A stretch of 64,000 bases of DNA, taken from contig JALJEE010001982.1 in NCBI GenBank assembly GCA_023231475.1, forward strand, positions 26,875 to 90,874, in the 5' to 3' direction. Under the pieces are notes generated by a model, which worked only from the letters and a program-made list of their open reading frames with translations, was not told where the DNA came from and searched no databases. Positions 48,032 to 53,845 of this stretch are shown here, piece after piece. Positions within the stretch are counted from its first letter, which is position 1; the number at the start of each line of letters is the position of its first letter. A program made the translations under genes and the position numbers. The DNA is from Seison nebaliae (Eukaryota > Rotifera > Pararotatoria > Seisonacea > Seisonidae).

Positions 48032-48061
48032 ATGAGTTCTGATGACGAAAAGGGATTGATG
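48032..48061 (+). other. Possible alternative first coding exon of syntaxin
   Basis: ATG at 48032 opens MSSDDEKGLM and is followed directly by a strong donor, GTGAGT at 48062-48067, in phase 0. The second syntaxin exon (49459) also starts in phase 0, so splicing would give MSSDDEKGLM joined to [10 protein letters not shown]. That is an acidic N-terminus much like known syntaxin-1 N-termini. It lies 1.3 kb upstream of the canonical first exon. Transcription is unproven. Confidence 0.25.
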
Positions 48062-49360
48062 GTGAGTGATAGAAGGGGAGGGAGTCGCTTTCACTTTCGA
48101 AAATTGGAGAATGAAATTTCCTCTTATTCGCTCATGCGGACAATGTACTTACATCGTAAAAGTTATAGCCGACTCGCGCCACACATCCACCTATCCATAC
48201 CTATCATCTTCTTCCCAACATCTTATACATAGTCAGTAGTTGTCATATGCATATTAGTATGTCACACTGTGTCACACTGTGTCACACACAATAAATATGT
48301 ACGTGTGGGCCATGAGTGAATGCGGATGTGTGTATGTGTCAATATACACATAGATGCGTGTATGTCGTGTCGAATATTTATCTTATTCATTTAATTCCTT
48401 CTTTTCTATCTAATTTTTTCTTTTATAATGTTAATGCAACTGCTTATTTAGTCCCTTATTAATTTGATTATATAATTATTGTTATTCTTATTATGATAGT
48501 CGACTTCTATTCCTATTATTCTCATTACGACCATTATTACTTCATTGACATGTTCCAGTGTTGTCTTCCATCATTATCATCATTATCATCATCATTATCA
48601 TCATTCCCATTTTGACAGTTATCTTTATTATTAAAATACTGTTATTCTTCCAATTACTAGTAATCATTGATGACGGAGGTAAATAAACATTTATTTCTCA
48701 TCAATTTCCTCTCGTTCGTGATTGGAATGAGGGTGAGAAATAATTTCCATGTAATTCCTTCTTATACATGATCCTTCGCACGCCATCCAGGTACCAGCTC
48801 TCTATGAACAATGTCGATGGTGTTTTCGGATGCCAATCAATTTCTTCATCCGTCACAATTCCATATATGGATAGATGTTCGTCAGATTAATGATGATGGA
48901 GATTATGTCGTCCCAATTCGACATTAAACGATTTCTCTCTTGCTCCTATGTCCAGATATGGTCAGGTATCGCTGATAATGGGTGAGTCGAATAAGATGGA
49001 ATTTATCCCCAAAAAAATTATTTTTCATTCGTCAATTAAACTCTCTCGTTCTTCGATTACATCCATTTCCTGTTCATTCATTTATCTATCTCTATTACTA
49101 TTTCTCTTTTTTTTTTTTTTCTTTACTTCAGTTCGACAGATCAATATTTGGATTATATCTCCACATTCTCTTCATATTCCTTCCATCCAGAACACCATGT
49201 GTACGATCGATCAATGATTGATCGACCAATTCCTTATTTCACATCTCAAAATATTATCGAATCGAATTCTTCATCAATACGCTCACAACAATTGATCCAT
49301 CCGTCGTCATAATCATTCACTTTTGTTTCCACTTCCCAATCACTTCATTGATAAGACGCG

Positions 49361-52300
49361 ATGGCGAAAGATCGCTTAGAAGCGTTGAAAGCTGCCGTTT
49401 CCATTTTATCTTTCTTCCTCCTCCTCCTTCTTCTATCATCTCATCCTCTCCTCCAAAGGCACAAGATGATGACGACGATGTCGATGATGTCGCCGTTACC
49501 ATGGACGCTGGTGGCTACATGGAAGATTTCTTCCAAGAAGTCGAAGGAATCAGAACTAAAGTCAATCAAATTAATCAAAACGTCGAATTAGTCAAACGAG
49601 CTCATAGTAGTATACTATCCGCTCCTCAACCAGATGAACGTTAAAATTCTCGTATTCCACTTCCCCATCATCATTTGCCCATTTGCAGGAGTGAAACAAG
49701 ATCTGGAACAGAGGATGTCTGATATCAAACGAACGGCAAATCAAGTTCGTCAGAAATTGAAAGGTAATTTTTCTAACATTCTCATAATCTCATTTTTTTT
49801 TTCATTTAAATTCTTCATTTATATTCTTCATTTTCATTAACAATCCTAACATTCTTTTCACTAATCAGCCATGGAAGCAAGAATAGAACAAACTGAACAA
49901 GAATCATCAGCATCAGCTGATCTCCGAATCAGAAAATCTCAGGTAATATTTCTTCTCAGTTTTTCTCATTTTATTAGAAATTCATTTTATTATCATTCCA
50001 TTTTATTATCATTTGAAAAAGAAAAAAATTCTTTCAATCATTTTCTTATCCTAACCGATATTCTCTTCCATCATCTCTTCCAAATATCACATAATTTTCA
50101 CTTTTTATGGAGAGAAGGTTGTTATGCACAGATTGTTGCACATGAAGCGACCGGAGTACCAACCGCTCAAATAAAAGCAATGAAATCCACGGTATTCTTC
50201 TTAACTAATCTTCCCATTTTCTTTTCTTTCCTTTTCTTTTCTTTTCAGTTTCACATTTAAATTTTATTTCCAATTCTCATAAGAATTTCAAGAGAATATT
50301 TCCATTTTCTACATTTATTTATTCGACGAATTTAAAATAGAAAATAATTTTTTTTTTCTTTTTTGTTATCTCCATTATTTGAAGCATGCAACGTTATCCA
50401 GACAATTTATCGAAGTTATGCACAGTTACAATGTTGCACAAGTCGATTATCGAGAGCGTTGTAAAGCTCGGATCCAACGTCAACTTGAAATGAGTGCGTC
50501 ATTTTTTCTAACTTATTCTAAGTCTTCTTATTTTCCTTCGCTATAAATAACGCTTTATTCTCCGTTTACTAATTCCCCTTTTCTTATTGTGCTAATAACC
50601 AGACTGATGGTGACGGAGAGGGGGTAGTGATAGTTGTAGTGAATCGTTAATTTTCTTTCCTTTTAATGTTCAGTTGTTTCCGTTCTCATCGTGGTAGTTG
50701 TGATTCATTTTTTGCCGGATAGTATAATATGATGGTGAAAAGTTTGACGGAAAGTATGAAGCATTACGACGAAGTGCAGATCGCTTTCCGAACTCATACG
50801 AAAAGACTTTTAATGCAACAGCTTGCCACTAGTTAGTTTGTCAACCACTTCTTTTCCACCCTCCACACACACACACACACAAAAATGCGTCTTCAATTAT
50901 TTTTATCTGGTGATTATTCTTTCTTGCTTGCACAAACATTTTTGGTGATATCTTCCTGTAATTATCTTCCATGATTATTTTCTATTTCATTTCTAATTCT
51001 TTTTTTTTGGTGACGACTTTTAGCTGGGAAAGTGACAAACAATGACGAAATTGAAGATATGTTGGAGAAAGGAACGCCCAACGTATTTATTGATGGAGTT
51101 AAATTAGTTCGAACTTTCTTTCTATTTTTATCCAACAGATTATCATCGATACACAACAAGCGAAACAAACATTGAAAGATATTACTGATCGACATGAAGA
51201 CATTATGAAATTGGAAACGTCGATTCGAGAACTACACGAAATGTTCACGGACATGGCCACTCTAGTCGAAAGTCAAGTTCATCTTCCAATTCGATTTTTC
51301 AACAATTCACAATTTTCAATTGGAAATTTCAGGGAGAAATGATCGATCGTATCGAATTCAATGTAGATCACGCTGTCAACTATATCAATTCAGCGAAAGC
51401 GGATACGAAAACCGCCGTCAAATATCAAAGCGCAGCGAGGAAAGTTTGTAGGAATTTCTCATCAACCATTTTATGTAACTATTGTGTTCTATGTGTTTAA
51501 TGTATTCGTTCATTGTGTTCTACTCCACCAGTTGTGTTCTCTAACATCTACTCACTTTTTTTCTGCTTTCTTCAGTTAACAGTCCAATTAGCTTCCTCTC
51601 CTTATCATTTCGTAGTTTTTCTTCATTCTTCAATTATCCACATTCATCGATCATTGTTATGATCGGATTTTCATGAAATGAAAATTATTATTGGGATAAT
51701 TAGAAAAGTGCCTTAAATGGACATCTTTCCATTCCATCAATGCGATTTGTGGAAAATGGAAAACAGTGGACGATCAGGGAGCGAATTGTGCGAATTCCCA
51801 CTCTAACACACAATATGTTACAATTTAACATCTTCTTCAACCTTAGATAACACCACCATTTATCATCGATATCTTACACCGGCGTAAGATGAAGAAGAAG
51901 CAGAATATATCATCACGAAGAATTTATTAATAACTAATCGTCAATAGTAGCAGCTATTGCAGTCGTCATCTCTCTAGGTACATTTTCCTTCCTTCCTTCC
52001 TTCCTTCCTTCCTTCAATCCTCTCAAGCGATTTGATGTGAATATGGATATGCTAGAACATTCGATTATTTACTCTCTGCTTCACCACCATGATCTGTCGA
52101 TGCTTAACTAACTCTCATAACGCTTCTCCAACGATTCATTCATTTTCTTTCGACGGACGACGAACATCTTCAATTCGATTCGATAAATACATTCGATTTC
52201 GATGCATTCATGAATGGGATAGGATCCTTCTCCACATTTATACTTTTATTTATCCTCTCAACTCTCATATTATCTTCCATTTCTTATGAATATAGAAATA

Positions 52301-53845
52301 TATGATCATTGGTGGAATAGCTATTGCTGTCATTCTTATTATCATCATCATTGTTCTTGCTACTAGATGAACATCATCAATAGAATCATTCCAATCTCAT
52401 CAATATTATTATCATCATCATCATTCCAATGTCATTCCAATATCAGCATCATTATTCCAATATTATCAACATTATTATTATTATTATTATTATCATCAGC
52501 ATTCCAATCTCATCGTAAAGATCTATATTCAAATATCATTCAAATCATTCCAACTTAATCGATAAAGACATCAAAATCTATTCGTCAATATAAATATAAA
52601 TATATATATATATATATGAACAGTCAATTCTATAAGTCATTACATTTATTTCAATTCATCGCGAACCTCTTCCAGAAACGACACACAACAACAACAAAAA
52701 TGGTCATCGGTCATTTTCTTCAAAGAATTTTTCGTTTAATTTAATTTATATATTCAGTTCAATTCAGTTCAACTATCCTCTCCAATCAACACAATAATCC
52801 AATTTACTTCTTCTCGATAATCATTACATCTTTCTCTTCTTCTCATTCATAGAAACGATTGGTCTTTATCGGCTTCTCTCTAATTGTCACTGGAATTATT
52901 ATAATTATTATAGTCTCCAAATTCCTTTGATTGTTTGTGGGTGAGAGACAATTCCTCATCTACATCGATATTCATGCTTTCTCAACTAATCTTACATTAA
53001 CCAGTCAAACATTGTTGTGAGAAGACTGTGATCCATCATCATTCCATTTCATTCGACATATTCTATTTTCACAAACTCCACAAATTTCCACTGAATCCAA
53101 TTCACAATTTCTCACTACCCACCCACCCCTCTAAAACTAATCGATTGAATAAGGAAAACATTACACTCTTCAACGCATTGATGAAATACTAGATTGTGAA
53201 ACAATTGAGAAGAATAAAAATCTGATCATTATCGAACGATGAAAGAAATAAGAAAAATCAGTTTTTAAAAAATACCATCAAATCACCACACATACACACA
53301 CATAGACATATCTCTGTTAATCTTATTATTCCTGCAAAACTATATGCCTTGCACCGGTGCATCTCAACGAAAACATCTGCAATCTCCTTCTTCCCAACAC
53401 ACACACACACAGAACTCAAAATTAAGAAATTGGGAAAGAATATTTTTTCTCATTTCATTCCCTCGATTTGGATCTCATTCCAATTGTGTAACGTCTGTCA
53501 ACCAATTGATTAGTGATCAATTATTTAATCTATTTTCATTTCTGTAATCTACTTCTTCTCCCTTGTAATTAAATGAATCTTCTCCAAATATCTTCTCTCA
53601 TCAATTCATTCGTGGTATCAATTTTGGTACAGTGTTCGTGCAGTCTTTCTGCACTGTTAGTGCAATTCTTGTATTTAATGTGAATTTTATGCATTATTCG
53701 TTGTGTCAATTTTCCTTCATTCCAAAACCATATTAATATCATCCCAATATCGATCATTTTCTAGAAAAAGATAATAATGATGATCTGCCTTCTTGTTATC
53801 GTCGTTATTCTGGTAGCTTGGTTGGCATATTATTTTACTGGTTGA
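49361..53845 (+). CDS. Syntaxin-1-like t-SNARE with alternative exons
   Basis: Syntaxin 1 is the plasma-membrane Qa-SNARE that drives synaptic and secretory vesicle fusion. Constitutive exons are 49361-49396 ([12 protein letters not shown]), 49459-49639 ([16 protein letters not shown]), 49689-49763 ([16 protein letters not shown]), 49869-49942 (ADLRIRKSQ), 51024-51097, 51139-51276 ([19 protein letters not shown]) and 51333-51443 ([20 protein letters not shown] to KYQSAARK). The last three carry the SNARE motif, whose zero-layer Gln lies in [12 protein letters not shown]. One of two helix-Hc exons (50385-50493 or 50723-50831) fills the central gap. One of three membrane-anchor exons (52296, 52853 or 53765) ends the protein. 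Usual length of about 290 residues. Introns are GT-AG, mostly 40-110 nt in the 5' half but long around the alternative exons. Confidence 0.95.
50132..50191 (+). other. Candidate 60-nt in-frame cassette exon of syntaxin
   Basis: Inside the 442-nt intron between RIRKSQ and the Hc exon lies a 60-nt open segment flanked by AG and GT. It is phase 0 at both ends and encodes [20 protein letters not shown]. Its base composition is much richer in GC than the surrounding intron. Inclusion would add 20 residues just before helix Hc without a frame change. Syntaxins of other animals go directly from RIRKTQ to HSTLSRKF, so this would be an insertion specific to this lineage. Confidence 0.4.
50385..50493 (+). 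other. Syntaxin exon 5A (canonical helix Hc)
   Basis: 109 nt (36 codons plus one base) with acceptor AG at 50383-50384 and donor GTGCGT. It encodes the canonical Hc segment: HATLSRQ, then [20 protein letters not shown], then ARIQRQLEM. This matches the highly conserved syntaxin-1 block almost residue for residue. Confidence 0.92.
50723..50831 (+). other. Syntaxin exon 5B (divergent duplicate of helix Hc)
   Basis: Again exactly 109 nt, same phases, acceptor AG at 50721-50722 and donor GTTAGT. Positions 8-27 read [20 protein letters not shown], aligned without gaps to exon 5A (shared M12, Y15, Q19, R23, K27, Q33, L34). Both exons end on the first base of the same codon, so including both would shift the frame. 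That implies mutually exclusive use. Confidence 0.85.
52296..52370 (+). other. Syntaxin terminal exon with membrane anchor 1
   Basis: An AG acceptor at 52294-52295 is followed by AAA (Lys) and a 24-codon frame, [12 protein letters not shown] then a run of Ile ending VLATR, stop TGA 52368-52370. It supplies a single C-terminal membrane span with basic flank in phase with the ...AARK end at 51443. Confidence 0.8.
52853..52930 (+). other. Syntaxin terminal exon with membrane anchor 2
   Basis: An AG acceptor at 52851-52852, then [14 protein letters not shown], an Ile run and IVSKFL with stop TGA 52928-52930. Same phase and basic start as the other two anchors but a different hydrophobic core. 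Confidence 0.8.
53765..53845 (+). other. Syntaxin terminal exon with membrane anchor 3
   Basis: An AG acceptor at 53763-53764, then [20 protein letters not shown] and AYYFTG, stop TGA 53843-53845. The KKI-M-M start is closest to the canonical syntaxin-1 anchor (K-K-I-M-I-I-I-C-C-V). This is probably the ancestral terminal exon, placed last after two shorter-range alternatives. Confidence 0.85.

What the first reader, a model, noticed from the sequence alone, without database searches (positions are those of the whole stretch)
50385..50831. Mutually exclusive exon pair for the Hc regulatory helix of syntaxin
Exons at 50385-50493 and 50723-50831 have identical length (109 nt), identical phases, good splice sites and gapless peptide similarity. 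Both encode the segment between RIRKSQ and TGKVTNND. 5A is the canonical, nearly invariant sequence. 5B keeps the helical pattern but changes most surface residues ([13 protein letters not shown] becomes [13 protein letters not shown]). Helix Hc packs on the SNARE motif in closed syntaxin and contacts Munc18, so the switch could make a form with altered autoinhibition. Known syntaxin-1 splice variants I am aware of alter the C-terminus, not Hc.
Basis: partly seen in the sequence, partly recalled or inferred. Interest (0 to 1): 0.85.

Follow-up and report, generated by a model that had tools for sequence, protein, structure and literature searches.

The report
Alternative helix exons in rotifer syntaxin
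A tiny marine rotifer's gene for the nerve-release protein syntaxin carries two interchangeable versions of one exon in its self-locking domain, and molluscs and several kinds of worms have a similar pair of versions at the same spot, which points to an old, little-noticed switch in how cells release transmitter.

Summary
The window is from the rotifer Seison nebaliae and contains its syntaxin-1 gene. Exons 5A (50385-50493) and 5B (50723-50831) are both 109 nt with identical phases; using both or neither gives an early stop. 5B resembles the Hc segment far beyond chance: second of 127,784 scanned 36-codon positions, and 43 against -2 for the next of 55 splice-flanked open candidates. The deposited annotation also uses 5B with the same boundaries, but fused to the first ten residues of 5A.

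New: predicted isoforms of Lineus, two scallop records, Octopus and Dreissena differ within exactly these 36 residues and nowhere in the ~225 around them. A second Hc class (B) occurs in 62 of 177 collected syntaxins, from six spiralian phyla. One apparently unspliced ORF carries both exons in tandem, with what look like the same phases.

5A belongs to class A. 5B falls on the class B side, and a 5A+5B sister pair is disfavoured (p-AU 0.03), but its branch is very long and exon order is reversed. 5B changes rat R151 and I155, the reported Munc13 contact, to Q and T. No transcript evidence was available; function is inferred.

The parts
49361..49396 (+). Syntaxin-1 exon 1 (start codon; [12 protein letters not shown])
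   Evidence: spliced model; the 5A model equals deposited protein P0004
49459..49639 (+). exon 2 (Ha region)
49689..49763 (+). exon 3 (Hb region)
49869..49942 (+). exon 4, ends ...ADLRIRKSQ in phase 0
50385..50493 (+). exon 5A, canonical Hc segment (class A), 109 nt, phase 0 in / 1 out
   Evidence: class A side of the 99/97 split
50723..50831 (+). exon 5B, alternative Hc segment, 109 nt, same phases; replaces 5A
   Evidence: used with the same boundaries in deposited protein P0003
50415..50420 (+). internal donor GAA|gttatg inside 5A, implied by the deposited fusion isoform P0003 (10 residues of 5A joined to 5B)
   Evidence: splice-site listing
51024..51097 (+). exon 6 (TGKVTNND..., linker region)
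51139..51276 (+). exon 7 (SNARE motif, first part)
51333..51443 (+). exon 8 (SNARE motif, second part)
52296..52370 (+). alternative terminal exon, transmembrane version A (used in P0003 and P0004), to its stop codon
52853..52930 (+). alternative terminal exon, transmembrane version B, to its stop codon (read from sequence)
53765..53845 (+). alternative terminal exon, transmembrane version C, to its stop codon (read from sequence)

Best explanation
5A and 5B are alternative, mutually exclusive coding exons for residues 123-158 of Seison syntaxin-1 (rat 120-155), which make up most of the Hc helix of the autoinhibitory Habc domain. They are the Seison version of an Hc exon pair widespread in spiralian animals. 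Because each exon is 3n+1 nt, only transcripts with exactly one of them stay in frame; double inclusion or skipping gives an early stop. Shown here: exon anatomy, frame arithmetic, protein-level retention of the helix pattern, and the same swap in predicted isoforms of other animals. Inferred: that Seison makes the 5B transcript; that 5B descends from the spiralian class B exon and then diverged fast; and that the 5B form keeps the three-helix fold and SNARE motif but has a changed Hc surface, so that Munc18 binding and Munc13-driven opening differ (rat R151 and I155 become Q and T), giving a form with different priming control.
For: Equal length and phases, and early stops with both or neither. 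Protein similarity far above chance and coding-like codons. Neutral decay would rarely leave this combination. Pfam Syntaxin aligns over the same 33-183 stretch with 5B (110.7 bits; 133.6 with 5A). Isoform pairs of Lineus, Mizuhopecten, Argopecten/Pecten, Octopus and Dreissena have 0 upstream mismatches and 0 in the 105 residues downstream, with 8-12 within the 36 (5 of 8 rows; the other three are no clean tests, see Tried and rejected). P0123 holds class B and class A in tandem in one apparently unspliced ORF, each preceded by Q and followed by S, as CAG|...A|GT would read. Class A/B split 99/97, 5A on the A side, 5B on the B side, 5A+5B sister pair disfavoured at p-AU 0.03. One strongly matching syntaxin-1 locus in the genome, with four weaker matches on other contigs; Sec1-family and MUN-domain sequences are present (orthology to Munc18 and Munc13 not tested). 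The column of rat R151 is invariant in the 43 aligned proteins and that of I155 is at least 90% I; PMC8728020 (passages) names R151/I155 as the MUN-domain site.
Against: No transcript evidence. The deposited 5B model is a 5A(10 aa)-5B fusion. 5B is extremely divergent (branch 3.29 changes per column), the tree rests on 36 columns with an unsettled bootstrap, and class B without 5B is not rejected (p-AU 0.20). Exon order in Seison is A then 5B, whereas P0123 and the fused Macrostomum model P0124 imply B then A. All 22 distinct class B segments keep R at rat 151 and have I, or in one case M, at 155, so the proposed Munc13 effect would not be shared with the other phyla. Seison 5A itself has M at 155. 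No close relative was available to test purifying selection on 5B.
Confidence: 0.68

Rival explanations
1. 5B is used, but as a partial extension: an internal donor in 5A joins its first ten codons to 5B, giving a 300-residue syntaxin with a longer Hc helix (the deposited isoform P0003), not a clean swap.
For: It is the deposited model and stays in frame. Several donors in this gene are GTT types, so gttatg is not unusual.
Against: The fusion lowers the Pfam Syntaxin score below the clean swap (97.3 against 110.7 bits). The AlphaFold model of the fusion has lower confidence over residues 31-150 (10-residue blocks 66-85) than that of the 5A isoform (78-93) and an Hc helix of 56 instead of 46 residues (the clean-swap isoform was not modelled). 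A Macrostomum model (P0124) is fused near the same EVM site, as expected if gene predictors force tandem exclusive exons into one frame (inference).
Confidence: 0.17
2. 5B is an independent, Seison-lineage exon copy that arose separately from the mollusc/flatworm class B exon; a convergent second origin of Hc switching.
For: Reversed exon order against P0123 and P0124; 8 of 36 identities to 5A and at most 10 of 36 to class A or class B; class B held together without 5B is not rejected (p-AU 0.20).
Against: A 5A+5B sister pair is disfavoured (p-AU 0.03); 5B scores somewhat nearer class B (mean BLOSUM 45.6 against 38.3; profile 3.6 against 1.1 bits, much of it from the first residue); same place and phases.
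Confidence: 0.3
3. 5B is a decaying, unused exon copy.
For: Very long branch; no transcript evidence; no relative in which to test constraint.
Against: Open frame, exact length, both splice sites, coding-like codons and retained Hc pattern together; the annotation uses it.
Confidence: 0.1

Closest known systems
Class A / class B Hc isoforms of spiralian syntaxin-1 (predicted isoforms in databases, e.g. P0011/P0085, P0030/P0103, P0024/P0099)
   Same: same 36 residues swapped, same boundaries; the one tandem ORF (P0123) appears to have the same phases
   Different: class B is a subtle change (8-12 residues in the five pairs) that keeps R151 and I155, and lies upstream of A in P0123 and P0124; Seison 5B differs from 5A at 28 of 36 residues and lies downstream
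SNAP-25 exon 5a/5b (PMC2581893, seen as search listing and start of abstract only)
   Same: mutually exclusive duplicated exon in a partner SNARE
   Different: other gene; described there as a duplication in higher vertebrates; SNAP-25 has no Habc domain (recalled)
C. elegans unc-64 exons 8a/8b, regulated by UNC-75/CELF (PMC4946901, passages)
   Same: alternative exons in the syntaxin-1 gene; Seison too has what look like alternative terminal membrane-anchor exons
   Different: changes the C-terminal membrane anchor, not Hc

Membership tests
Syntaxin-1 (Qa-SNARE) | Habc (PF00804) and SNARE (PF05739) domains; full-length similarity to syntaxin-1A | tested here: met
   PF00804 133.6 bits with 5A and 110.7 with 5B, PF05739 50.2 with either; PDB syntaxin-1A E 8.6e-84 with the 5B isoform
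Mutually exclusive exon pair | tandem homologous exons, same length and phase, only one usable per in-frame transcript | tested here: met
   109/109 nt, phases 0 and 1; both or neither gives early stops; homology at protein level
Mutually exclusive exon pair | transcripts with each exon alone and not both | not testable with these tools
   no Seison transcripts were found; deposited models show 5A alone (P0004) and a 5A-5B fusion (P0003)
Spiralian class A/B Hc exon pair | one exon belongs to class A | tested here: met
   5A on the class A side, 99/97, and inside a 7-row subset of class A, 98/89
Spiralian class A/B Hc exon pair | the other exon belongs to class B | tested here: inconclusive
   on the B side of the 99/97 split, but class B without 5B is not rejected, p-AU 0.20; profile 3.6 against 1.1 bits
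Spiralian class A/B Hc exon pair | class B exon upstream of class A (order seen in P0123, P0124) | tested here: not met
   Seison order is 5A then 5B; order elsewhere from two examples, so it is not established as a defining feature

The most novel reading that the evidence does not exclude
Spiralian animals inherited a splice switch in the autoinhibitory helix of their neuronal syntaxin. Seison has driven the second version so far that it lacks the Munc13 contact (rat R151, I155), making a syntaxin whose opening and priming no longer depend on Munc13 in the usual way.
Probability: 0.25. Interest if true: 0.82.

Novelty: new variant of a known kind. Interest (0 to 1): 0.66.

Why it matters
Syntaxin-1 opening, controlled by Habc, Munc18 and Munc13, is a central control point of transmitter release. 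A splice swap confined to the Hc segment, with the second version present in molluscs, nemerteans, annelids, a bryozoan, flatworms and an orthonectid and probably in a rotifer, would be a natural set of mutants at that control point, testable in Octopus, scallop or Macrostomum as well as by reconstitution. The listings of my paper searches showed no description of it (one open-access library, most subscription papers missing).

Tried and rejected
Chance open frame between splice-like sites: rejected. Recent copy of 5A: no nucleotide similarity detected and disfavoured on the tree. A second syntaxin-1 locus: one strong locus, four weaker matches on other contigs. A separate class B exon in the genome: the class B consensus hit only 5A, even at E up to 10; but it did not find 5B either, so an exon as divergent as 5B would be missed. 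A region search for proteins sharing words with 5B itself returned one candidate, the Seison protein P0003, so no 5B-like intermediate turned up at that sensitivity; no rotifer appears by name among the 89 hits, of which 62 carry class B, 20 class A and 7 neither by my rule. Intron pairing that might enforce exclusivity: several AT-rich inverted repeats, e.g. 50335-50348 / 50974-50987 (14 nt, fully complementary); not tested against chance, none compelling. My choice of heptad-core columns was made after seeing the pattern and is not counted as evidence. Plasmid search with 5B: no match, as expected.

Rows that are no clean tests: the Haliotis row compared two class B proteins, and the two Mya rows mismatch upstream (39 of 91), P0133 being shorter (251 residues), with a differing upstream sequence; two further Lineus pairs also differ at six residues in 236-263. 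Rows left out of the profiles and the tree: segments were cut out by a motif and classed by columns 4 and 34. P0003 and P0004 (Seison) were left out on purpose; P0124, P0174 and P0175 were not caught by the motif; P0178 was cut at a wrong place and P0179 has a shortened segment; P0128 fell outside the rule and was added to class B by eye in the tree. The two segments of P0123 were added by hand.

Full report
What the window is. A 42-residue region search with 5B returned a single protein, a Seison nebaliae hypothetical protein (SNEBB_001265) on a 90,874-base contig. The window maps to contig C659 of a 36.0 Mb, 846-contig assembly. S. nebaliae is a rotifer. I do not know which submission this is; the published draft GA2 is 43.9 Mb in 3301 contigs (PMC8351084, passages).

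Anatomy. The syntaxin-1 gene reads 49361-51443 through exons 1-8, followed by three alternative terminal exons encoding different membrane anchors (only the first is used in the deposited proteins that I saw). My 5A isoform is identical to the deposited protein P0004 (100% over 100%). Exons 5A and 5B are both 109 nt, enter in phase 0 and leave in phase 1. Including both gives a stop at the second codon completed in 5B; skipping both gives a stop at the fourth codon after exon 4. The introns 4-5A, 5A-5B and 5B-6 are 442, 229 and 192 nt.

Is 5B real? As protein, 5B matches 5A at 8 of 36 positions and positively at 16 of 36. No shuffle of 5B out of 20,000 scores as well against 5A or against class A or class B profiles. 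In the whole window only 5A beats it. Its codons look coding. Replacing 5A by 5B leaves one continuous Pfam Syntaxin match over the same residues. Starting from 5A and mutating without constraint, the observed combination arises in 7 of 20,000 runs at mean nucleotide identity 0.45 and 74 of 20,000 at 0.53; observed 0.47 (indels not modelled, which favours the null; at lower divergence it is commoner, 1001 of 20,000 at mean identity 0.70). The deposited annotation takes 5B with the same ends, though fused to the first ten codons of 5A.

The wider family. Of 2593 matches to the 5A isoform 120 were listed; 14 of these 120 carry a different Hc segment, beginning Y(S/A)TISR and ending RQMEI. In Lineus, Mizuhopecten, Argopecten/Pecten, Octopus and Dreissena, a class A and a class B isoform have no mismatch upstream and none in the next 105 residues, and 8-12 within the 36 (eight rows were examined, the two Mya rows mismatch upstream and the Haliotis row is class B against class B). 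That each pair comes from one gene is inferred from isoform names and the same longest contig; these are predicted models. A search with the class B region returned 89 proteins of 92 candidates, an uncapped list: 62 class B, 20 class A, 7 neither by my rule, of which P0128 is class-B-like and P0123 holds both. Named class B carriers belong to Nemertea, Mollusca, Annelida (Dimorphilus; a leech form with H at position 1), Bryozoa (P0128), Platyhelminthes and Orthonectida (the phyla are recalled from the species names). P0123, apparently an unspliced ORF, contains class B at residue 58 and class A at residue 165, each preceded by Q and followed by S, as an A|GT donor would read. P0124, a fused Macrostomum model, also has B before A.

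Where does 5B belong? On 47 Hc segments of 36 columns, class A and class B separate at 99/97, 5A lies on the A side and 5B on the B side at the end of a 3.29-long branch. Holding 5A and 5B as sisters costs 3.7 log units (p-AU 0.03). Holding class B together without 5B costs 2.4 (p-AU 0.20), so membership is not settled. With so few columns, a bootstrap that had not settled and one very long branch these tests are weak. The Seison order (A, then 5B) is opposite to the two other examples. A tandem duplication of the pair with later loss would explain that; so would an independent origin.

How it may work. From the alignment with rat syntaxin-1A, Seison numbering minus 3 gives rat numbering, so exon 5 covers rat 120-155; the modelled Hc helix is 114-159 of P0004. 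PMC8728020 (passages) states that R151 and I155 of syntaxin-1, which it assigns to the linker region, interact with the Munc13-1 MUN domain. The column of R151 is invariant in 43 aligned syntaxins and that of I155 is at least 90% I. 5B has Q and T there; 5A has R and M; all 22 distinct class B segments have R, with I or once M. The genome has Sec1-family and MUN-domain sequences. The proposal that 5B syntaxin folds but is opened or chaperoned differently is inference. The AlphaFold model of the deposited fusion isoform makes 5B helical, with lower confidence than the 5A isoform; the clean swap was not modelled.

Literature. Searches for syntaxin with mutually exclusive exons, alternative splicing plus mollusc, Habc plus alternative splicing, Schistosoma splice variants, Octopus, Hc helix plus exon, and Lophotrochozoa listed no paper whose title or abstract start describes Hc exon alternatives (listings only, two of them empty; one search listed 20 of 30 papers). 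Of PMC4946901, on unc-64 C-terminal exons, I saw passages. Papers in subscription journals are mostly outside that library.

Verdict. A well-supported mutually exclusive exon pair. In kind it is a new variant: alternative exons are common and syntaxin anchors are known to vary, but a swap confined to the Hc segment, widespread in spiralians and extreme in Seison, appears undescribed as far as these searches reach. Transcript proof and function are open.

Noticed in passing
window 52296-53845: Three candidate alternative terminal exons encode three different membrane anchors of the same syntaxin, a kind of variation known from other syntaxin-1 genes.
   Followed up: partly
window 50132-50191: A 60-nt, in-frame, splice-flanked open stretch ([20 protein letters not shown]) lies between exons 4 and 5A; its codon use scores as high as only 2% of noncoding windows, though another frame scores higher. 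Possible cassette exon.
   Followed up: partly
window 50121-50142 and 50415-50440: A short near-identical repeat links intron 4 with the middle of 5A (1 of 1000 shuffles as good, six comparisons made); probably too similar to be an ancient exon remnant.
   Followed up: partly
P0010, P0019 and P0099 (Lineus longissimus), residues 236-263 in Seison numbering: Lineus isoforms also differ in the second half of the SNARE motif, suggesting a further alternative exon near the place of Seison exon 8.
   Followed up: no
P0003 and P0124: Deposited models from two animals fuse parts of tandem Hc exons near the same EVM site, possibly a gene-prediction artefact at exclusive exons.
   Followed up: partly
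window 48033-48062: A short open stretch MSSDDEKGLM followed by gtgagt lies upstream of the syntaxin start; possibly an alternative first exon or another gene's exon (read).
   Followed up: no
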